A DNA stretch of 64,000 bases from Telopea speciosissima (taxonomy: Eukaryota > Streptophyta > Magnoliopsida > Proteales > Proteaceae): positions 14,037,001 to 14,101,000 of the forward strand of contig NC_057924.1 of NCBI RefSeq assembly GCF_018873765.1, given 5' to 3'. This document shows positions 3,166 to 62,439 of this stretch, in pieces. Position numbers and translations under genes: made by a program. The number at the start of each line of letters is the position of its first letter. Within the stretch, counting starts at the first letter, position 1. The notes below the pieces were generated by a model. The model ran no database searches. It worked only from the letters and a program-made list of their open reading frames with translations, and was not told where the DNA came from.

Positions 3166-3392
3166 TGTTAGGTTTTAGAGTAAAAAGAGAAGAAAGAAGA
3201 AAAGCTCTAAGAGAGACAAAGTTCTAACACGATTTGGTGTAATCTGTTATCTCTCTCAACTAGAGACAAACAGCCTTATATTGAAAAGAATATTTAATTA
3301 CACTCAGGCCCTTAGCCAAATACAAATAACACATAGAATACATAAAAAGGGGTTTATGTACAAGTATACCCCTAAAACAACTATTCTTAACA
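3166..3392 (-). repeat. copia A 3' LTR
   Basis: A 227-bp terminal repeat, the left-hand copy. On minus it is preceded by the purine tract at about 3393-3400. It differs from the right-hand LTR at three positions seen by eye: two close together near 3222-3234 and one near 3376. Confidence 0.93.
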
Positions 3393-3402
3393 CTCCCCCT
3401 CA
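3393..3402 (-). promoter_or_regulatory. Polypurine tract of copia A
   Basis: The plus-strand ctccccctc reads GAGGGGGAG on minus, directly before the TGTTAAG end of the LTR. This is the expected plus-strand priming site of a copia element. Confidence 0.7.
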
Positions 3403-6400
3403 AGCTGGGTGGTATATGTCATACATACCCAGCTTGTCTAACATAAAACTGAAGTGATGAGAACTAAGTCCTTTGGTGAATATGTCTGCCACTTGTTCAT
3501 TTGTCTTCACAAAAGGAGTACAAATAGTCTTAGACTCTATCTTCTCCTTGATAAAGTGTTCATCAACCTCAACATGCTTTGTTCGGTCATGTTGAACCGG
3601 ATTGTGAGCAATACTGATGGCTGCCTTGTTATCGCAGTATAGACTCATAGGCTCAGTTGTCTCAAACTCCAATTCTTGAACAAGTTTCTTCAACCACAAG
3701 ATTTCACACACACCATGGGCCATGGCTCTAAACTCTGCTTCAGCACTTGACCTTGCTACCACAGGTTGCTTCTTACTTCTCCAACTAAGTTTCCCCCAAC
3801 AAAAGTACAGTATCCAGAAGTGGACCTTCTATCCGAAATAGACCCGGCCCAATCAGCATCTGTATAAACTTCGATTCTTAAGTGATCATTCCTAGAGAAG
3901 AGAAGTCCCTTTCCAGGACATGACTCCAGGTACCTGAGGATCCTATAAACTGCATCAAGATGTCCCATCTTGGGTGCATGCATAAACTGACTCACCACTC
4001 CAACAGCAAAAGTTATGTCAGGTCTGGTGAGGGAAAGATAGATTAGCTTGCCTACTAATCTCTGGTATTTTTCAGCATCCACAAAAGGTTCGCCACAATC
4101 TTCCCCCAGTCTGTGGTTCTGCTCAATAGGGGAGGAGATTGGTTTGCACCCTAAGTAGCCTGTCTTTGTAAGTAGATCAAGAACAAACTTCCTTTGGCAA
4201 ACATTGATCTCTTGCTTGGACCTTGAAGCTTCAATCTCCAAAAAATACTTCAATGGACCGAGATCTTTGATCTCAAACTGCCGAGCCAAATAAAGCTTAA
4301 GTTTTGAGATTTCAGCTTCACTATTTCCCGTGACCACAATGTCATCAACATAAACAATGAGAGTTGTAGTAGTACTGCCCTTCCTTTGCATAAACAATGT
4401 GTGATCAGCTTAACTTTGAGTATACCCATTTTGTTGTAGGGCTTGTCTAAACCTCTCAAACCAAGCCTTAAGAGACTATTTGAGTCCATAAAGAGCCATC
4501 CTAAGACGACAAACTTTCCCATTGTCACCAGTAAGCTTGAACCCAGGAGGATGATGCATATACACCTCTTCTTCTATGTCACCATGTAAGAATGCATTCT
4601 TCACATCAAGTTGGTACAATGGCCAATCAAGATTTGCAGCCACTGAGAGAAGTACACGGATGGAGTTGTGCTTGGCCACTGGAGCAAAGGTCTCCTAATA
4701 GTCAATGCCATACACCTGTGTATAACCCTTAGCGACCAGTCTTGCCTTATACCTCTCCACAGTACCATCAGACTTGAACTTGACCGTGAAAACCCATCTG
4801 CATCCAATAGGGGTCCTCCCTTTAGGAAGCTCAACAAGGTCCCAAGTGTGATTCTTCTCCAGAGCCAACATCTCTGTGTTCATTGCTTCTCTCCATTTTG
4901 GATCTACCATAGCTTCTGCTACATTCTTGGGAATAGATATGGAAGAGATAGCCACAGAAAAGGCTATACCTGTAAGGGAGATAGAATCATAGGAAACAAA
5001 CTTGGCAATGGGATTAGTACATGCCCTAATGCCCTTGCGGTGGGCAATAGGAAGATCTAAGTCTAAGAATATAGAAGTAGAAGAAGGTATACCTGTCTCG
5101 ATGGATGGAAGTTCAGGATGAGGAGACGAAGAACGGTTTTGGCAGGTCTTCTTTATAGGAAGCCATGAAGCAGGATTTCTTCTGTCTTTCGTATACAGCA
5201 GTGGCTCCCCCTGTTCTCTATTCACCTGTGCACTGGGAGACTCCCCCTCAATAACATTATCCACAGGAGGCTCCCCCTCAACAACAGTATCCACAGAACT
5301 TTTCTTTCCCTTGTCAATCTGAAAAGGAGAAATAGAAACAGGGGAGAAAAGAGGAACTGAAACAAACTCTGGAACCTCTTCACCCTCTACACCACCTCGA
5401 GATGAACACTCCCCCTGAAGAGGTGACTGAAAATAAGGAATAGTTTCAAAGAAATGGACATCTTTGGAGAGAAGCCACCGACGTGTAGGGGGATGATAAC
5501 ACTTATAACCTTTGGATGTAGAGGAATACCCAAAAAAGATGCACTTTAAAGCCTTAGGATCCAATTTAGTGCAGGCAGATTTGCTAATATGGACATAGCA
5601 AATACACCCAAACACCCTTGGTGGAAGAGAGAAGGAAGAAGAACAGGGAGGTAAGACCTCAAGTGGAACTTTGAAGTTCAAGACACTAGATGGCATGTGA
5701 TTAATAAGAAAGACAGCAATGAGGAGGGCATCAAACCAAAAGGTTTTTGGAACATGCATGGTAAACCGAAGCGACCTAGCTACTTCAAGAAGATGGCGAT
5801 TTTTTCTTTCAGCCACCCCATTTTGTTATGGGGTTTCAACACAGGCCACCTGATGAATAATGCCATGGTCAGAAAAAAAGGTTTCCAAACCACTATACAT
5901 ATACTCCCCACCTTTGTCAGAACGAACAATTTGGATCCGGGTTTGAAATTGGGTATACACTAACTCATAAAAATTTGAAAATGCAACATGGACATCACTT
6001 TTGTGTTTCAACAAGTACACCCAAGTAACCCGAGAATAATCATCAATAAAAGACACAAAGTAGCGGAAGCCACGCAAAGAGGTAACAGGGGAAGGCCCCC
6101 AAACATCAGTATGGATAAGATGAAAAGGTGAAGTAGATCTATTACCATTGGATGTATAAACTGTTTTACAACTTTTGGCAAATAAACAAGGTTCACAAGG
6201 AAAAACATGAGAGACAGGAAAGGAGGTAAATAAGTGAGGTAACTGTTTCCTCATAACAGAAAAAGAAGGGTGTCTCAACCGACGGTGCCAAAGCAAAATA
6301 TCCTCTTGAGTACGTCCACCTTCTTGCCCACAAACATAGGATTGAGGTTGTACAGCAGGGGAAGAACCAGGCTCCAAAACATATAACCCATTAGCTTCAT

Positions 6401-7774
6401 GACCACTGCCAATCACCTTCCTCGTCACCAAATCCTGAAAAAGACAATGGGTAGGAAAGAAGGTGATAAAGCAGTTCAAAGATTTAGTCAATTGGCTAAC
6501 GGAAAGAAGGTTAGTAGCAACGTTGGGAACATGAAAAACAGACTTCAAGGGTAAGCAAGGTGTAACTTGGATATCTCCCTTACCAGAGATGGAAGAGAAT
6601 GAACCATCAGCAATTTTTACCTTATCTTCCCAGAACAAACAGAGTAGGAATTATACAGCTGAGACCTACCAGTCATATGATCCATGGCGCTCGAGTCAAT
6701 AACCCAAGGTGTGGTGCCGGAGGAGGAAGAGGCCTGTAGTGCAGTAGAAGTAGGAGCAGCAGGTGAACCATCCAGGTGGGCTATAACCCGGCGAAAGGCA
6801 GCAATGTCAGCTTGGGAAAGGGAGGAGGAATCAGCTTCAATGACCCCAACATGAGCCTTAGGCCCCTTCTTCTGCTGTCCCTTCAGTCCCCCAGAGGAAC
6901 CAGGAGGGGGCTTCCCATGGAGATCCCAACAAAAGTCCTTCGTATGGCCAGATTTACCACAATGGTCACATAAGAATCGGCTCTTCGAAGATCCCTTAGC
7001 AGCCCCCTTATCAGCTCCCTTAGGGGAGTCCTGAGAGGTGGAAGAAACCAGAGCAGATCGCTCAACAGTGGGATTGGTACTAGTCCCCATGGCACCCCTA
7101 CGGGTTTCCTTACTCTGTAGATATCCACACACCTCCTCTAGTGAGGGAAGACTAGGTCGGCCAAGGATTTGTACCCTTAGAGGCTCAAATTCAGGATTCA
7201 GGCCACCAAGAAGAAATAGTACCCTCTCCTTCTCAAACAACCTATGTACCTTGACTTCATCATCAGGACACAGCTGAAGATCTCTTTAGTGATCATACTC
7301 CTCCCACAGGCCCACAACAAGACAATAGTACTCAGAGATGCTTCTATCACCCTGGCGTAGGCTAACAATCTGTTGGAGAAGTTAGTACACCTTTGTAGAG
7401 TCTCCAACACGATCAAAGATACAGGTTACACTATCCCAAATGTCTTTGGCAGTCTCCTTACCCATAAACCTCCGTCCAATCTCAGGCTTCATTGAGAAAA
7501 GAAGCCAAGCCATCACAAGAGAGTTCTCAGTGTCCCATTTGGAATACCCTTGGTCGGTAGGAAGAGGGGCCTTGATGCTGCCATTTATGTACCCCATCTT
7601 TCCCCTACACCTAAGGATCAGTTTCATGGATCGGGACCAATCTAGGTAGTTGGTATTGTCCAACTTGACAATGGGAAGCTGCACATTTGGGTGCTCATAT
7701 GAAGGGACAGAGGGTGATGCAGCAATTTGGTCTGCAGACAAAGGCAAGGCTGTTTCCACATTTTTGTCACCCAT
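3400..7774 (-). pseudogene. copia A gag-pol polyprotein, broken by several stops
   Basis: Read on minus from 7774, the domains run in copia order. First comes gag with LDNTNYLDWSRSMKLIL (7774-7382). A CCHC zinc knuckle, CDHCGKSGHTKDFC, lies near 6970-6930. The protease has PWVIDSSAMDHMTG, with the catalytic Asp kept but DSSA in place of the usual DSGA or DTGA (near 6690). GAG-pre-integrase follows with a W-H-R-R-L-R-H-P motif. The integrase core has HTDVWGP and SFIDDYSR (6150-6030). The reverse transcriptase carries [11 protein letters not shown] and YVDD (4620-4320). RNase H has [13 protein letters not shown] (3750-3400). Stops or frameshifts occur near 7382, 7290, 6640, 5820, 4690 and 4490-4400, so no full protein can be made. 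Domain content is complete apart from these breaks. Confidence 0.9.
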
Positions 7775-8300
7775 ATTTACCTTAAATCAAATACTTAGTA
7801 AGTCCAAACAACTGTATTCCAACCACAACAACTGCTCCTTGAACACAGCAGTAAAAAAGAGGCAAAAACAGAGACCAGAAAACTGAAAAAGGCTTGTAAA
7901 ACCTCAACAAAGCAGCAAACAGCAGCGGAGCAACAAGGGCAAGTCTTCCTTACCCAAAAACGATGCTGTATGGCCCAAAGAATGTAGCAGACAAAGCTCT
8001 ATCGAAGAGCTGGATCACTTCAAGAACTCTGACTGGCGGAAATGGTTGCAGAATGTGTCTGGCCGAAACTCAGATTCTGTCTTCTGATGCTGCCAGTAGA
8101 CTTGAGATGATCAAATGGCAAGAAAGGGGACTTCCAAACGAAGCTAGAGCATTTGGTTGCTCTCTATTTGGTTGTCAAACAAGGAAGAAACAGCTTGGTG
8201 AAGATACCCTAAGGTTTCCTTCGCAAACCAGCAAGAACAAGGAGATGGAGGTTAACTCTAGCCTTCCACGCAACCTTCAAACACCTTCAAACTCCAAGAT

Positions 8301-8318
8301 CAAATTGCTCTGATACCA
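8301..8318 (-). promoter_or_regulatory. Primer-binding site of copia A (initiator Met tRNA)
   Basis: On minus, directly inside the 5' LTR, the sequence reads TGGTATCAGAGCAATTTG. Its first 12 bases are the classic copia primer-binding site, complementary to the 3' end of initiator Met tRNA. Confidence 0.9.
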
Positions 8319-8545
8319 TGTTAGGTTTTAGAGTAAAAAGAGAAGAAAGAAGAAAAGCTCCAAGAGAGACAAAGTTCAAACACGATTTGGTGTAATCTGT
8401 TATCTCTCTCAACTAGAGACAAACAGCCTTATATTGAAAAGAATATTTAATTACACTCAGGCCCTTAGCCAAATACAAATAACACATAGAATACATAAAA
8501 AGGGGTTTATGTACAAGTATACCCCTGAAACAACTATTCTTAACA
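8319..8545 (-). repeat. copia A 5' LTR
   Basis: A 227-bp terminal repeat, the right-hand copy. It carries the promoter end of copia A. It is followed on the right by the second CAGCC target copy at 8546-8550. Confidence 0.93.
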
Positions 8546-8550
8546 CAGCC

Positions 8551-9199
8551 ATCTTATGGGGGTCCACCTTGCTCTACGGGTGATCGTTCCACTGTTGATG
8601 GCCCCTCGGTGAAGTGTGATTTTTATGGGAAGGAACGACACATCAAAGAAAAATGCTGGAAGTTACAATGGCGCCCCAATGATACATGGGGACGTGGACA
8701 GGGTCGTTTTTCTATAGCCAGGGCCAACCATACTCCATCTGAGGACACCACATCGATCAACCACTTTCTCAAGAGGAATTTCAGCATCTTCGTCATCTCA
8801 TGATCAGGCTGGACACCACCTCTTCATCCGCTCCTTCTACTGTCTTGGTTATTTCATTGCCAAGAGCCTCAGCTTTATCCACTTCTACCCCGTCAGGTAT
8901 TTCGTTTGGTGGCCAATGTGCCTCGGTCATGTCCACTTCTTGGATAATTGATTCAGGCACCACTAACCATATGACAGGTTCTTCTTCTCAATTCCTTCGG
9001 TATTTTCCTTTATCTGGTAACAATAAAGTCTGTGTTGCTGATGGTTCCCTTTCTTCTGTTTATGGGAAGGGCAACATTAAGTGTACTCCTCTTTCTCTTT
9101 CTTTTGTCTTACATGTTCCTAAATTTTCCACCAATTTGTTGTCCATAAGTAGTTTGACTTGTGATTTACATTGCACAGTGACTTTTTTCCTTACTCATT
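8551..9199 (+). pseudogene. copia B zinc knuckle and protease fragment
   Basis: Resumes exactly where copia A interrupts gag. At about 8610-8660 there is a damaged CCHC knuckle: CDFYGKERHIKEKC has Tyr for the second Cys. The protease follows, with SWIIDSGTTNHMTGSSSQFL (near 8940-9000; catalytic Asp in DSG), then VLHVPKFSTNLLSISSLT. The segment stops at 9199, in the target duplication TACTCATT of the LINE chimera. Its continuation is at 11310. Confidence 0.85.
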
Positions 9200-10845
9200 T
9201 TTTTTGGGTACATAAATATGTATTACCTTACCCCAGGGGGGGACAGGAAGAAAAGAATATACAAGGGAAAAGGGGGGAGGGGGAGAAACAACAACCAACC
9301 TACGCAGAGGTGGTAAGAAAAAGAGAGGCCAGATCAAGGCCCCAGTAGTCTGCAGTGTGCCTGTTCCTAGGGGTGTGCCTGTTCCTAGGGGTGTCCCTGA
9401 CAGCGCGAAGATGGGCACGGCTGAGCTTGGAAGAGACTTCAAAGGAGATGGCTTTCCAAATCAGATCGAAGGATCGAGAGTTGGAAGTCCATCTCCTAAG
9501 GTTACACTCCATCCAAATTTGGTGAATAGCAGCTCCAAAGACCTGCTTTCCGATGGTGTCACAAATCGAGGTCCCAGAGAAGGACTTAGCGACCCAAAGC
9601 CATTCTCTGTCAAAGGGGAGAGGTCTCCTATTTCGGTGCCAGATGGAGGAAAGGGCTTTTTGCCCGATGGTAGAGCTGAAAGGGCAGTCAAAGAAGAGGT
9701 GGGGGATGTTCTCAATACCATTCCAGCATAGGGAGCAAGCAGGGGAAACATGGATGTGACGGTGAATAAGAAAGGCTTGGGTTGGAAGGCAAAGGCGGAA
9801 GGCTCTCTAGGAGGTAAGGCTATGGCGGGGAATGTGGCCTTTGAACTAGACAAGGTTGTGCCAGGGGACAGAGGGGGCGGAGGGGCGGATAAAGTTCCAG
9901 GCTGAGGAAGTGTTGAAGAGGCCATTGGGAGAGGGCAACCACAAGAGTCTGTCATCATGGGGGGGGGAGGGGAGGGGAGGGGGGGAGAGCAGGCCAGATC
10001 CGAGCGACTATAGAGGGATTGAGGAAAGGGGGGGGGGGACCAGGAACCAGAGGAAATGAGACTGGAAAGGGGGGCAATTTTTGGAAGACCAAAGGAGTAT
10101 ATAGACCTGGGACCGAGGACGCAGAAGAGGATACCAAGGGGGTGCCAAGGATCAAGCCAGAGGGAGGTGGAGGAGCCACGAGCAATGGAGGAAGAGATCC
10201 CACGGAGGGCTAGGGGGCGGAGGGCAAGGATCTTTCTCCAAATCCAGGAGGCATCAGAGGGGGTGGAGATAGTCCATAAGGAGTCGGACTTGAGAAGGTG
10301 AGAGTAGACCCAGTTAACCCAGATGGAATTATGGCGAGTAGAGATTTTCCAGATCAACTTGAGAATACCAGCAGTATTGGAATCTTTGATGCGCCGTATC
10401 CCAAGACCTCCCTCGGATTTTGGCAGGCAGATGGACTTCCAGGTGACAGGGTGGAGGAACCTGAAGGCATCGGCCCCTTTCCAGAGGAAAGCACAGAAGA
10501 GGTGCTCCATCTCCTGGGTAGTGGCTTTGGGTAAGCCAAAGATCCCACACCAATAGATGTAAGAAGCTTGGAGGACAGAGCAAATACAAACAAGGCGGCC
10601 TGCATAGGAAAGGAGTTTGCTTTTCCAGAGCTAGAGGCGCTTGCGGATGTTGTCCAGCATAGGAGTGCAGTGGTGCTTGGAAAGCCGGGCCGGAATGAGG
10701 GGAAGACCAAGGTATTTGACTGGGAGGGAGCCCAAGGAGAAGCCAGTCAGGTGCAAAAGGGAGTCTCTCTCCTGATCAGGAATACCAGAGAGGAAGATTT
10801 TGGATTTGAGGAGATTGATGCGGAGGCCGGAGAGGGTCTCAAGGA
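9200..10845 (-). pseudogene. L1-type LINE copy 2: reverse transcriptase end and zf-RVT
   Basis: On minus from about 10845 the sequence encodes LSGLRINLLKSKIF, LGSLPVKYLGLPLIP and YIYWCGIFGLPKATTQEME, all standard in plant L1 reverse transcriptases. A 349-codon open stretch (10510-9461) then carries FLWKGADAFRFLHPVTWKSI, EGGLGIRRIKDSN and SLWLDPWHPLG (zf-RVT region). The N-terminal endonuclease and catalytic FADD region are absent, so it is truncated. Purine-rich runs near 9960-9990 and 10025-10040 disrupt the frame. Confidence 0.85.
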
Positions 10846-11282
10846 CACGGGAGGGCAGCCGGTTATTAAGCTATGCAGCAGAAAGGACTGCATCACCCCA
10901 AAACCGAGGAAGGACTGCCATAGTAAACATAAGGGATCTGGCAACTTCCAAGAGGTGTCAATTCTTTCTTTCCGCGACATCATTCTGAGCTGGAGTGTCG
11001 ACACAAGAAGTCTGGTGGATGATCCCATTATCAGACAGATAAGATTGAAATGAACCCTTCATATATACCTTCCCATTATCGGACCTCAAAATCTTCACCT
11101 TGGCATCAAACTGAGTCTGAACCATTTTATGAAATAACTGGAAGTAGGATGAGACATCACTCTTCTGATGCATAAGGTAAACCCATGTAGTACGACTAAA
11201 GCAATCAATGAAAGTAACAAACCAACGAAGCCAGAAGTAGAAAAGCAACAGATTGGGCCCTACACATCAGAATGAATGTGTC
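10846..11282 (-). pseudogene. Captured copia integrase core, inverted relative to copia B
   Basis: The minus-strand frame 11248-10958 encodes FIDCFSRTTWVYLMHQKSDV, ILRSDNGKVY and DTPAQNDVAERKN, the copia integrase core. It continues into LSAA and NRLPSRVLE before the LINE join. The same segment occurs on + at about 11634-12084. The inverted copy has a cleaner frame than the + copy and lacks its internal ~50-bp duplication, so it probably derives from another family member rather than from the adjacent DNA. Confidence 0.8.
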
Positions 11283-11309
11283 CCTCCAGGTTCCTCCACC
11301 CTGTCTCCC

Positions 11310-12241
11310 TACTCATTGTATTGCCCAAGACTTGAAAACGGGTCGTACGATTAGCAGTGGTAAGGTAATTGGTGGTCTTTACATCCTAGATAGCTCTTCA
11401 TCAGTTCCATCAGCTTTGGTTTCACGTTCTGACTCATCTAATTCTGCCTTGGCTGAACTACATAGATGGCATCAATGTTTGGGCCATCCTCTTAGAATCT
11501 TATCTACTTTATTAGCCAGTTTAGTTAAAAGTTGTAATGCAAACAATTTCTCTTGTGATGCTTGCATTTTTGCAAAACAGACTTTAGCTATTTTATCCAG
11601 TTTCAGAAAGTAAAAGTTTAATTCCATTTGGTTTGATTCATTCTAATGTGTAGGGTCCAACCTGTTGCTGTTCTACTTCTGGCTTCGTTGGTTTGTTACT
11701 TTCATTGATTGCTTTAGTCGTACTACATGGGTTTACCTTATGCATCAGAAGAGTGATGTCTCATCCTACTTCCAGTTATTTCATAAAATGGTTGAAATTT
11801 GGTCGATAATGGGAAGGTATAGGTTTGATGCCAAGGTGATAAGATTTTGAGGTCCGATAATGGGAAGGTATATATGAAGGGTTCATTTCAATCTTATCTG
11901 TCTGATAATGGGATCATCCACCAGACTTCCTGTGTCGACACTCCAGCTCAGAATGGTGTCGCGGAAAGAAAGAATCGGCACCTCTTGGAAGTTGCCAAAT
12001 CCCTTATGTTTACTCTAGCAGTCTCTCCTCGGTTTTGGGGTGATGCAGTCCTTTCTGCTGCATAACCGGCTGCCCTCACGTGTCCTTGACGCTCACTGCC
12101 CTCTGGAGGTCTTATTGGGCTCCTTTTATTTTATTGTACCCCTGAAGGTGTTTGGTTGTGTGGTTTTTCCTAGAAATCACCATGTTAGTGGGAAATTTGA
12201 TCCCAAGGGACTTAGCTGCATTTTCTTGGGATACTTTGCCA
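11310..12241 (+). pseudogene. copia B GAG-pre-integrase and integrase fragment
   Basis: 11320-11613 encodes the GAG-pre-integrase domain (IAQDLKTGRTISSGKVIGGL, HRWHQCLGHP, and a zinc-binding C-x2-C as CDACIFAKQ). 11665-12249 encodes the integrase core with WVYLMHQKSDV, RSDNGKVYMKGSF, PAQNGVAERKNRHLLEV and FGCVVF. An internal repeat near 11800-11870, in which gataatgggaaggtat occurs twice, breaks the frame. A stop follows VLSAA near 12062. The fragment ends in the target copy TACTTTGCCA at 12232-12241. Confidence 0.85.
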
Positions 12242-13380
12242 TAGTTTGAGAACTTGCGAGATCTCGCCGAGTTTCTCTGTTTTTCGAAATCCCGAGACAA
12301 GACTGCCTACGAGTCTCAAAATGTCAATATCTCGCTGAGATCTCGGATCTCGGTCGAGATCTTGGTTTGACATAGGAAAATGCCCATCTAGGTCCTTTAT
12401 ATGAGTGTCAGATCTCGAGATCTTGCTGAAAAATCTTGGTATACAGACACCTATCTATGCCAGGAACCAAGACAGACAAGACAGACGAGTTAGCATACGA
12501 GTTGTAAAAAGTGCAACAACTCTACCGAGATCTTGCCGAGTTCTCGAGAATCTCGATCCAAACTCTTTTGACGATCTCGAGATCTTGTGGAAAATCTTGT
12601 ATAAAGACACTATCTATGCAACATGTATCACACTTATTTAGGCCGAAAGACCTTATTTATGCCTAAATAAGCAATACCCTATTATTATTTTATTTCATTT
12701 ACTTAAGATATTATTCATAATAAGCAATACCCTTAGTTAAAATAAAATTCAAAAGGAAAAAATCGGAGTCAATTTTCAACTTTTAATGTTGGGTTTTCAA
12801 ATCTAAAATTCCATAAATCTTAATATAAAACATTGCTAAAAGCTAAAACTAAAATATTCATTGTTTGATGTCCAAAATATATTTTCATTGAGTGAAAGCA
12901 ATTAAGTTTGACATATAAATTTTCAATCTTTTGGAAAATTTGAATTTGATTTTTAACTATTATTATTGGATTCAAATAGGGGGCTATTTGCTTATTTATG
13001 AATAATATCTTAAGTAAATGAAATACAAATACAAAAGCATTTATTTAAATGATATTAGGCATAAATTGCCTAAATAAGTGTGTTTGTCTTGTGTCTGTCC
13101 TGGTTTCTAGCATAAGTAAGTGTCTATCCTGCTTTCCCACTAAGTGAAACTCCTATTTGGACTTTGTTTTTGCAAAATCTGAGTGCCAATGTGTTTAGAT
13201 GGCCTAAAATAGGTTGAATACCAAGTTTTAGACCTAAACTAAGTCTAAAACCCACCGAGATGAGGCTTCGAGTCGAGAAAAAAAAAAGTGCACCAACTCG
13301 GCGAGATCTCGACTCGACTCAGTTTTTCAAGGGTCCAAGTTGGCACCGAGACCCGAGTTTTCGAACCTTGTACTTTGCCA
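12232..13380. mobile_element. Non-autonomous Mutator-like element with 10-bp target duplication
   Basis: TACTTTGCCA occurs at 12232-12241 and 13371-13380, and the copia integrase frame continues across the two sites. The 1129-bp insert has imperfect terminal inverted repeats (AGTTTGAGAACTTGCGAG on the left; AGGTTCGAAAACTCGGGT as the complement of the right end). It is filled with short inverted and direct repeats of cgagatctcg type and an AT-rich centre. Mirrored subterminal text (cacttatttaggc...gcctaaataagtg) points to a foldback-like body. There is no transposase. A 9-10 bp duplication suggests the Mutator superfamily. Confidence 0.75.
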
Positions 13381-22628: not shown

Positions 22629-23140
22629 CAGAAAGTAGCTACGAAATGGGAAAGATATCTTGTTTTTTTCAACTCCGAAACAAAACTAGCTACGAAATGA
22701 GAAAGATACATTGACTCGGCCGAGGTCTCGACCGAAACCAAACCAAACCAATGTTATAAAGTGACTTATGTCGACCTAGACCAGTCGAGATTTCAATAAG
22801 TCTCAGTCATCTCGATGGGAAACCAAGACAGACACTTATTTATACCAGAAACCAGGACAGACATTTATGCACTTATTAAGTAAATGTTTTTATATTTGTT
22901 ATTTCATTTACTTAAGAAATTATTCAAAAATAAGTACATACCCCCTATTTGAATCCAATAAAAATAGTTAAAAAATTAAATTCCAAAATGATAAAAAGCC
23001 AACCCCCAGTTCAAGAACAAAAATTGGATTTTTTGCGGTAGGTGCAATTTTCAACTTTTAAATGCTGAGGGTTTTCTCAAATCTAAAAATTCCATAATTC
23101 TTGATATGATAAAATATTTCTAATAGCCAAAAGTGCGATT
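22629..23140. repeat. Repeat related to the Mutator-like element at 12242-13370
   Basis: It contains the same text blocks as that element: tctcgaccgaaacc-type CG-rich ends, accaagacagacacttattt, gttatttcatttacttaag and cctatttgaatccaat. A direct repeat, agctacgaaatg-gaaagata, occurs twice near 22640 and 22690. It truncates LINE copy 3. Its right limit is unclear. Confidence 0.5.
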
Positions 23141-60419: not shown

Positions 60420-61202
60420 CCTTATTTTTTTGCACTAATCATAGATGATTTAACTAGAGATATTCAAGATGAGGTTCCTTGGTGTATGCTTTTTTCTGAT
60501 GATATTGTTTTGGTGGATGAAACAAAAGCAGGAATCAACGCCAAGTTGGAGTTATGGAAATAAACCTTGAAATCAAAAGGTTTTAAGATAAGTAAAACGA
60601 AAAGAGTATATACTGTTTAACTTTAATTATACTATTCACCCCCCAAAAAAAAAACTTTAGTTACACTAGAACTAATAATGCGGTGGTGAAAATTGCTGAG
60701 AGGGAGATCCCACAAAATGATTATTTTAGGTATCCCGGTTCAATCATAAATAAAGAAGGTGATATAGAGAATGATGTTTCACAGAGAATTAAAATAGGAT
60801 GGAAGACGTGGAGAGATGGGTCCAGAGGGTTGTGTGATCGATGTATTTCTTTATAACTTGAAGGAAAATTTTATAAAGCAGACCTACGACTGGCTATGAT
60901 GTATGGTGCGAAATGTTGGGCAGTTAAGAAGCATCATATAGATAAATTGAGTGTAGCTGAGACGAGGATTTTGAGATGGATGTGTGGCAAAACTAGGAAG
61001 AATAAAGTAACGAATAATCATTATTAGAGCTGATTTGAGAGTAGCTCCGATACATGATAGCTACAAGAAAATTGTTTGAGGTGGCATGGGCATGTTCAAT
61101 GGAGACCTTTAGATGTTCTAGTACAGAGGAGTGATTTAATTCAAGATTAAAGGGGCTAAAAGAATCAAGGGCAAACCTAAAATGACTCTGGGAGAAGTTG
61201 AG
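60420..61202 (+). pseudogene. RTE-type LINE reverse transcriptase relic
   Basis: Broken frames on + encode FALIIDDLTRDIQDEVPWCM followed by LFSDDIVLVDE (the F-x-DD catalytic box, here FSDD), LELWK, FRYPGSIINKEGDIENDV, RLAMMYGAKCWAVKK, ETRILRWMCG and a GKPKMTLGE tail. These are the familiar blocks of plant RTE LINEs. Stops and shifts abound. It breaks off at 61202, where the foldback element begins. The tail of the same LINE class is in the metallothionein intron. Confidence 0.8.
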
Positions 61203-62390
61203 GCAGATAAGTCACATAATGGGCTTATTTTATTGGAAATAAGCCTTGGATGGGGTTATGTATGCATTGGGCCTTTGATTCTATGTGTTTTCTTTGTAAT
61301 GGACCTAAAATATGGGTACAAGGAAGGCATACGGGATTAGGCTTAGTAGTAGCTTATTTAGTTATTTTCATATATCTAGGTAGTTAAGTGTCTTTTCATA
61401 TTCCTAGGCAGATTTATTATTTTCCTTGTTTGTAGTTCCAAAGTCGTGGAGCAAGTCTCTAGTTTTCTTGGGGGTGGGGTTCAATGTATTGGGTTTATGT
61501 TTTCTATGTAATGGGTTGGGAATACCAACAGTTCATAATTGCTTACATGTATGTTTGGGGAACTCCTTCCTCCCCTATAAATTCAAATGGTGAAGGCTGC
61601 TTTGCCATTCCAGAATTCTTAAAACAAAGACTTAGTCTTCTTCTCTCTTTGAGAACTTTTTCTTGTGAGACTCAAGTGGGATCAAGGTGGGATCAAGGTG
61701 GGACTCCTTCGATCGTGACCTCGCCACCTCGGTGCGACTCCGGTGGTTGGGCAACTAGTGGGACCCTAGGCTGCCACCTATATATCTTCTTCTTCAACTG
61801 TCATCATCCTCATCAGTATTCCGTAGATTTATTATTTTCCTTGTTTATAGTTCCAAAGTCTTGGAAGAAGTCTCTAGTTTTCTTGGGGGTAGGATTCAAT
61901 GTATTGGGTTTATGTTTTCTATGTAATGGGTTGGGAATACCAACAGTCCATTAATTGCTTACATGTATCTAAGGGGTTTTTGAACTCCTTCCTCCCCTAT
62001 AAATTCAAATGGTGGAAGGCTGCTTTGCCATTCCAGAATTCTTAAAACAAAGACTTAGTCTTCTCTCTTTGAGAACTTTTCTTGTCAGACCCAAGTGGGA
62101 TCAAGGTGGGACTCCTTCGATCGTGACCTCAGTGGGACTCCGGCGGTTGAGCAACTAGTGGGACTCTAGGCTGCCACCTATATATCTTCATCTTCAACTA
62201 TCATCATCTTCATTGGCTCCATCATCATAAGGTCCTACTAAGCCTAATCCCGTATGCCTTCCTTGTACCCATATTTTAGATTAAAGTGGCCCATTACAAA
62301 GAAAACACATAGAATCAAAGGCCCAATGCATACATAACCCCACCCAAGGCTTATTTCCAACAAAATAAGCCCATTATGTGATTTATCTGC
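61203..62390. mobile_element. Foldback element with 147-156 bp terminal inverted repeats
   Basis: The left arm 61203-61349 starts gcagataagtcacataatgg; the right arm 62235-62390 is its complement with few differences. Between the arms lie two direct copies of a ~400-bp block (61411-61825 and 61826-62220). Each contains ccttgtttgtagttcc-type text, a ctataaattcaaatgg TATA-like region and ggctgccacctatatatctt. No protein is encoded; the + frame at 61484-61954 spans the repeat. Sequence after 62390 may resume the RTE LINE, but no target duplication was settled. Confidence 0.75.
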
Positions 62391-62439
62391 ATCAGAAGTG
62401 GCGAGGAAAGACATGCATAGCTTAAGCATTGTATCAAAC

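What the first reader, a model, noticed from the sequence alone, without database searches (positions are those of the whole stretch)
9192..11317. LINE insertion with a copia integrase segment fused to its 5' end
One 8-bp target duplication (TACTCATT) encloses, on minus, a copia integrase core in sense, then a truncated L1 in sense, then an A tail. The host copia resumes in frame outside it. Seen: the order, orientation, tail and duplication. Known: L1-type enzymes can switch templates during target-primed reverse transcription. Inference: the LINE enzyme jumped from LINE RNA to a copia transcript, giving a LINE/LTR chimera rarely described in plants.
Basis: partly seen in the sequence, partly recalled or inferred. 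Interest (0 to 1): 0.75.

Follow-up and report, generated by a model that had tools for sequence, protein, structure and literature searches.

The report
LINE insertion patched with neighbouring DNA
A jumping gene (a LINE) inserted into another jumping gene in a plant, and its front end was probably finished with an upside-down copy of host sequence lying about 300 bases away plus a scrap of the LINE itself, so the apparent fusion of two elements is best read as local patching and not as capture of a distant transcript.

Summary
In detail: one 8-bp duplication (TACTCATT) encloses, on minus, a 439-bp copia integrase piece, then a 5'-truncated L1 and an A6 tail. The empty site is in frame, and 23 of 28 other genomic copies of this copia read straight across it. 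In 7 of 7 L1 copies fetched (of 39 listed) L1 runs unbroken through the junction.

The source was missed. The integrase piece is the reverse complement of the host copia's own integrase, 318-771 bp from the insertion point. In a tree with 28 other copies, insert and host are sisters (UFBoot 100) and share a 1-bp deletion found in none of the 28. Between integrase and duplication lies a second scrap: 26 nt of inverted L1, 26 of 26 identical to one L1 copy. The L1/integrase join shares TTGA.

Best reading: an L1 insertion whose 5' end was completed by locally templated synthesis (filler or snap-back). A jump onto a distant copia RNA, or 5' transduction, is disfavoured; a jump onto RNA or displaced DNA of the host locus is not excluded. 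New variant of a known kind. The genome is probably Telopea speciosissima.

The parts
9192..9199 (.). target-site duplication, copy at the LINE 3' (A-tail) side
   Evidence: TACTCATT; empty site in frame; once, exact or as a variant, in 23 of 28 other copia copies
9200..9205 (-). A6 tail of the LINE (T6 on plus)
   Evidence: sequence
9206..10845 (-). L1-type LINE, 5'-truncated in the reverse-transcriptase region, zf-RVT near the 3' end
   Evidence: Pfam zf-RVT, alignment to plant LINE proteins, other genomic copies, the best long one 91% over query 7-1654
10839..10845 (-). junction L1/integrase; bases TCCTTGA in element sense, of which TTGA is shared by L1 and copia
   Evidence: L1 copy L002 reads TCTTTGAG, host copia TCCTTGAC, insert TCCTTGAG
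10839..11277 (-). copia integrase piece, inverted copy of the host element's 11636-12089
   Evidence: sister to the host copy among 30 sequences; Pfam rve
11278..11282 (.). five unassigned bases (GTGTC on plus)
   Evidence: outside the copia homology: all 39 non-self rows begin at 11277
11283..11308 (+). 26-nt L1 piece in the opposite orientation to the main L1 body
   Evidence: 24 of 26 to the insert's own 10442-10467, 26 of 26 to L1 copy L006; score 20 against at most 13 in 600 controls
11310..11317 (.). target-site duplication, copy at the LINE 5' side
11636..12089 (+). host copia integrase, inferred template of the inverted copy; since altered by an 8-bp deletion and a short local patch
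10442..10467 (-). place in the L1 body matching the inverted 26-nt piece

Best explanation
An L1-type LINE inserted on the minus strand into the Pol_BBD to GAG-pre-integrase region of an already resident copia element by target-primed reverse transcription (shown: A tail, 8-bp duplication, truncated L1). Its 5' end was not joined directly: the gap was closed by synthesis on local templates (inferred). About 440-450 nt were copied in inverted orientation from the host copia flank beginning 318 bp beyond the nick, and 26 nt from L1 sequence, with a TTGA microhomology at the L1/integrase join. The geometry fits either (M1) the growing plus-strand cDNA moving from L1 RNA to host plus-strand sequence and then back onto L1 cDNA, or (M2) the right-hand 3' end copying 26 nt of L1 RNA and then snapping back on its own strand before annealing to the cDNA. 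Plant end-joining (filler DNA) or the LINE enzyme itself could have done the synthesis; the sequence does not decide.
For: Insert and host integrase are sisters among 30 sequences (UFBoot 100, FastTree 0.98) and group together also when the middle, the distal, and the 5' plus distal stretches are analysed separately (supports not read out). Ten derived states are shared by the two against the eight nearest copies, including a 1-bp deletion found in none of the 28 others. The pair is the longest of the three inverted pairs found in the window. Empty site and unbroken L1 copies. The 26-nt inverted L1 piece is far beyond chance. Precedents, read as passages: a large fraction of ZfL2-2 LINE 5' extra nucleotides come from flanking sequence (PMC4245944); in Arabidopsis break repair 3 of 4 insertions (80, 328 and 534 bp) came from the flank or the excised spacer, the 80-bp one in opposite polarity, and short filler (1-36 bp) was usually copied from nearby sequence (PMC3289645).
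Against: Insert and host differ at 19 of 431 aligned sites, so a lost, unassembled or unscored sibling copy as donor cannot be ruled out; only 40 of 2,620 candidates were scored. Differences are unevenly spread, so later gene conversion may have inflated the likeness in the middle, where 8 of the 10 shared derived states lie; the outer parts alone still pair the two. No microhomology was evident at the joins other than TTGA, and six added bases are unassigned. In PMC3289645 the fourth Arabidopsis insertion came from another chromosome and the six tobacco ones were not traced to the flank. No bench data.
Confidence: 0.72

Rival explanations
1. The LINE reverse transcriptase jumped from L1 RNA to an RNA transcribed from the host copia locus itself (nascent, sense), then ended on L1 cDNA. 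This keeps the reader's mechanism with a local RNA.
For: The integrase piece is sense relative to L1, the orientation that passages of PMC13174262 associate with template switching or RNA ligation; the local source is compatible with a local transcript.
Against: Needs transcription of a decayed element at that moment; does not by itself give the 26-nt inverted L1 piece; DNA templating explains the same geometry.
Confidence: 0.13
2. One reading: a jump to a transcript of a copia copy elsewhere in the genome.
For: Known for other RNAs in mammals (PMC13174262, passages); orientation fits.
Against: Of the 38 other copies listed besides the host, none is closer than the host (40 of 2,620 candidates scored); the insert carries a 1-bp deletion that only the host shares among 29 other copies.
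Confidence: 0.05
3. 5' transduction: a donor locus with L1 inserted in sense in a copia was transcribed as a chimeric RNA and retrotransposed.
For: Sense copia/LINE juxtapositions exist (P0137 has copia domains followed by zf-RVT).
Against: Among the 41 rows for the whole insert only the window itself covers the junction and the integrase, though only 40 of 5,962 candidates were scored and a junction-only search did not complete; it also requires landing by chance 318 bp from the closest relative found.
Confidence: 0.04
4. A later event: a break at the 5' end of an ordinary L1 insertion was repaired with an inverted copy of the flank, or gene conversion reshaped it.
For: The host shows a similar small local patch near 11804-11821; clustering of differences suggests conversion.
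Against: The filler ends one base from the duplication, which a later independent break would have to hit by chance.
Confidence: 0.05
5. Classical twin priming on one L1 RNA.
For: An inverted L1 piece sits at the 5' end inside the duplication.
Against: The inverted piece comes from the part of L1 that the direct cDNA also contains (10442-10467 lies inside 9206-10845), which one RNA cannot give simply; the 8-bp duplication is shorter than the 10-20 bp that passages of PMC4245944 report for human L1 inversions; does not explain the integrase.
Confidence: 0.01

Closest known systems
LINE 5' junctions with extra nucleotides (5' EX; [quoted passage not shown] PMC4245944 and PMC2666801, passages)
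   Same: Non-LINE bases at the 5' junction, a large fraction derived from flanking sequence
   Different: Here about 470 nt with two local sources, one inverted; the passages speak of 'several extra nucleotides', and their lengths were not looked up
Plant filler DNA and locally derived insertions at double-strand breaks (PMC3289645, passages)
   Same: In Arabidopsis 3 of 4 insertions of 80, 328 and 534 bp were local, the 80-bp one in opposite polarity, plus 1-36 bp filler copied from nearby
   Different: The break here was made by a LINE during insertion; the inverted copy is about 440 bp and its source was not deleted
Maize Cin4 insertion wx-Cin4-2 with 13 bp extra sequence at its 5' end (PMC10490952, passages)
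   Same: Plant non-LTR insertion with a 5' addition
   Different: 13 bp against about 470 bp
LINE-1 chimeras with U6, U3, 28S and Alu RNA (PMC13174262, passages)
   Same: Foreign segment joined to a truncated LINE in the same orientation inside one duplication
   Different: The partner here is the target-site flank, not an abundant RNA; no second copy of the junction among scored matches
Twin priming (PMC2837659, passages)
   Same: Inverted L1 piece at the 5' end
   Different: Only 26 nt, overlapping the direct part, and separated from it by integrase

Membership tests
L1-clade LINE insertion | target-site duplication | tested here: met
   8 bp, empty site checked
L1-clade LINE insertion | A tail at the 3' end | tested here: met
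   A6 on minus
L1-clade LINE insertion | ORF2 with RT and zf-RVT | tested here: met
   zf-RVT in Pfam; RT-region alignment; no Pfam model scored on the two RT-side fragments given
L1-clade LINE insertion | endonuclease domain | not testable with these tools
   absent through 5' truncation
RT template-switch chimera with a foreign RNA | foreign segment in the same orientation as the LINE, inside one duplication | tested here: met
RT template-switch chimera with a foreign RNA | segment best matches an RNA source away from the target | tested here: not met
   nearest relative found is the host flank (40 of 2,620 candidates scored)
Locally templated filler (5' EX) | added bases derived from the flank or from the LINE itself | tested here: met
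   integrase piece from 11636-12089, 26 nt from L1; 6 of 471 added bases (11278-11282 and 11309) unassigned
Locally templated filler (5' EX) | short homology at the joins | tested here: inconclusive
   TTGA at one join; none evident at the other two
Twin priming | inverted 5' segment adjoining the direct segment on the same RNA | tested here: not met
   26 nt inverted, but overlapping the direct part and not adjoining it
5' transduction | donor locus with the same junction | tested here: inconclusive
   not among the 41 rows (40 of 5,962 candidates scored); junction-only search unanswered

The most novel reading that the evidence does not exclude
During target-primed reverse transcription the plant L1 enzyme itself left its RNA and copied about 450 nt of the displaced target strand, or of a nascent transcript of the target locus, then turned back onto its own cDNA: a LINE copying its landing site in cis and thereby building an inverted repeat inside the host element.
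Probability: 0.3. Interest if true: 0.55.

Novelty: new variant of a known kind. Interest (0 to 1): 0.36.

Why it matters
It shows that an apparent LINE/LTR fusion can be made from the target's own flank, so chimeras should be checked against the landing site before a captured transcript is claimed. It is also a well-resolved plant example of a long, two-source 5' junction: empty site, L1 relatives, likely donor flank and filler are all identified. Such insertions make inverted repeats, here arms of about 440 bp with 358 bp between their inner ends, which could feed gene conversion or double-stranded RNA (inference).

Tried and rejected
Considered and rejected: distant copia RNA, 5' transduction, simple twin priming, and two separate insertions (no duplication at the ends of the integrase piece; the empty site closes across the whole unit). 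I first took the TAG stop in the DVWG motif as a private mark of insert and host: of 171 proteins held, 52 matched the motif pattern and all 52 have W; but genomic copy L013 also has TAG, so it is not private and I dropped it. One search counts on 67 relatives used a pattern that demanded W and are not used for that residue. A first count of shared states demanding absence from all 28 other copies gave only 1 site; against the eight nearest copies it gave 10, counting the deletion. The first tree alignment held 14 sequences because copies on the other strand were left out; it was redone with all 28 others. One search printed three L1 loci in the wrong orientation; redone. Split support was not read out for the partial trees (printed as None), so they are cited for grouping only; they held 28, 29 and 30 of the 30 sequences. 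The clustering P value is post hoc and leaves out the 5 differences in the host patch. Rfam and tRNA scans were empty. Literature: 9 of 10 searches used; the lists were capped at 10-15 rows; no listed title or abstract start described a plant LINE with a long inverted copy of its own target flank, which is a statement about those listings only. Passages of PMC4838847 (L1-like retrocopies in dicots) and PMC13317346 (gene capture by plant elements) were seen and gave no such case. Other papers named in the listings were not opened.

Full report
What is there. The window is C9:14037001-14101000 of an 823-Mb assembly. At 9192-11317 two copies of TACTCATT enclose 2,110 bp. Read on minus they hold: 1 base, 26 nt of inverted L1, 5 unassigned bases, a 439-bp copia integrase piece, about 1,640 bp of L1 (overlapping the piece by the 7-bp junction), and six A. 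Pfam finds the integrase core (rve) and the LINE zinc finger zf-RVT; LINE reverse transcriptases of plants align from the junction onward.

The host. The insertion splits a copia element on plus between a Pol_BBD match (in 8743-9192) and a GAG-pre-integrase match (in 11320-11610). Closing the site across one TACTCATT gives an open frame, TFFLTHCIAQDLKTGRTI. Of 28 other copies of this copia fetched from the genome, 23 align straight across the point with one copy of the site or a variant of it, 2 only partly and 3 not at all. The duplication is therefore real and encloses one unit. These are paralogues; no orthologous empty site was available.

The L1 side. Of 41 rows for the whole insert in the genome, one is the window itself; none of the other 40 goes beyond query position 1664, 39 end at 1645-1664 (window 10836-10855) and one is a short internal stretch (40 of 5,962 candidates were scored). 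In all 7 L1 loci fetched besides the window (of those 39) L1 runs unbroken through the junction. The L1 is thus truncated there. L1 copy L002 reads TCTTTGAG, the host copia TCCTTGAC and the insert TCCTTGAG: four contiguous shared bases, TTGA.

The integrase side. The piece 10839-11277 is the reverse complement of host 11636-12089, with 412 identical and 19 different sites and three indel blocks. In a genome search the host copy is the best match after the piece itself (89% with gaps); the next two are 86% (40 of 2,620 candidates scored). A tree of the piece, the host and 28 other copies pairs insert and host with 100% ultrafast bootstrap and FastTree support 0.98; the shared stem (0.031-0.037) is longer than the insert's own branch (0.014). 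Ten derived states are shared against the eight nearest copies, among them a deletion of one T that none of the 28 others has; eight of the ten lie between 11009 and 11244 and two nearer the L1 junction, and several of the substitutions recur in more distant copies. The pairing holds for the middle, for the distal part, and for the 5' plus distal part taken alone. The donor was therefore most likely the host element itself, 318-771 bp from the nick. Since then the host has changed more than the insert: 13 against 4 polarised sites with 2 unresolved, 5 of the 13 in one patch, plus an 8-bp deletion.

The second scrap. Between integrase and duplication, 11283-11308 matches L1 in the opposite orientation: 24 of 26 to the insert's own L1 body and 26 of 26 to genomic copy L006. 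Its score of 20 compares with at most 13 in 600 controls, 300 window pieces and 300 shuffles. All 39 non-self copia rows begin at 11277, so this scrap is no part of copia. Whether it was copied from this insertion's own L1, whose body has since changed at two sites, or from another L1 RNA is open.

How it probably arose. Shown: one target duplication, an A tail, a truncated L1, and two added segments whose best sources lie at the site or in the LINE. Inferred: the L1 cDNA was made by target priming and the 5' end was closed by synthesis on nearby templates. Growth from the cDNA end (host strand, then its own cDNA) or from the other end (L1 RNA, then snap-back on its own strand) both give the product. 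Published passages support the elements: a large fraction of the extra nucleotides at ZfL2-2 LINE 5' junctions come from flanking sequence (PMC4245944), and a large proportion were ascribed, as unpublished data, to template jumping (PMC2666801); in Arabidopsis break repair 3 of 4 insertions (80, 328, 534 bp) came from the flank or the excised spacer, the 80-bp one in opposite polarity, with short filler usually copied from nearby, while the fourth came from another chromosome and six tobacco insertions were not traced to the flank (PMC3289645); a maize Cin4 insertion has 13 extra bases at its 5' end (PMC10490952). Passages of PMC13174262 take sense orientation as a sign of template switching or RNA ligation and antisense as a possible sign of twin priming; by that rule the piece would be a switch, but the rule was drawn for RNAs from elsewhere.

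Caveats. The 14 substitutions outside the host patch are clustered: a run of 211 columns without one, P 0.00035 in 20,000 shuffles, chosen after seeing the data. Gene conversion between the two arms is a fair reading, and it would make the shared deletion, which lies in the clean stretch, weaker evidence. The terminal branch of the L1 body is 0.047 in a tree of eight copies, longer than that of the integrase piece, which is compatible with conversion or with change in the source L1 lineage before insertion. A closer sibling copy of the copia may be unassembled or unscored. The junction-only genome search did not complete.

Verdict. The captured sequence most likely came from the landing site, which makes this a long, two-source version of a known kind of LINE 5' junction.

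Noticed in passing
3166-8545: A second copia on minus sits in the gag part of the host copia; its 228-bp terminal repeats are 98.7% identical and CAGCC flanks it.
   Followed up: partly
12240-13375: An insertion of about 1.1 kb rich in CGAGATCTCG motifs, with TACTTTGCCA at both ends, further splits the host copia; parts match 22876-23132.
   Followed up: no
1000-2400: Another L1 copy on minus, 73-75% identical in its matching parts, with a long T run at its low end.
   Followed up: no
11804-11821: The host integrase carries a small patch that repeats CGATAATGGGAAGGTATA from 11855-11872; the insert and the nearest other copies have the ordinary sequence, so the patch is a change of the host.
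   Followed up: partly
L013 with 11260-11262 and 11651-11653: Three copies share a TAG in place of the W of the integrase DVWG motif, which suggests that a defective copia lineage was still amplified.
   Followed up: no
10839-11277 with 11636-12089: Differences between the inverted arms are clustered, as gene conversion would leave them.
   Followed up: partly
9357-9392: A short head-to-tail duplication (GTGCCTGTTCCTAGGGGT) inside the 3' part of the L1.
   Followed up: no
protein P0137: A 454-aa predicted protein with copia domains followed by LINE zf-RVT, probably a LINE inserted in sense in a copia.
   Followed up: partly
61199-62394: A cluster of direct (88%) and inverted (91%) repeats.
   Followed up: no
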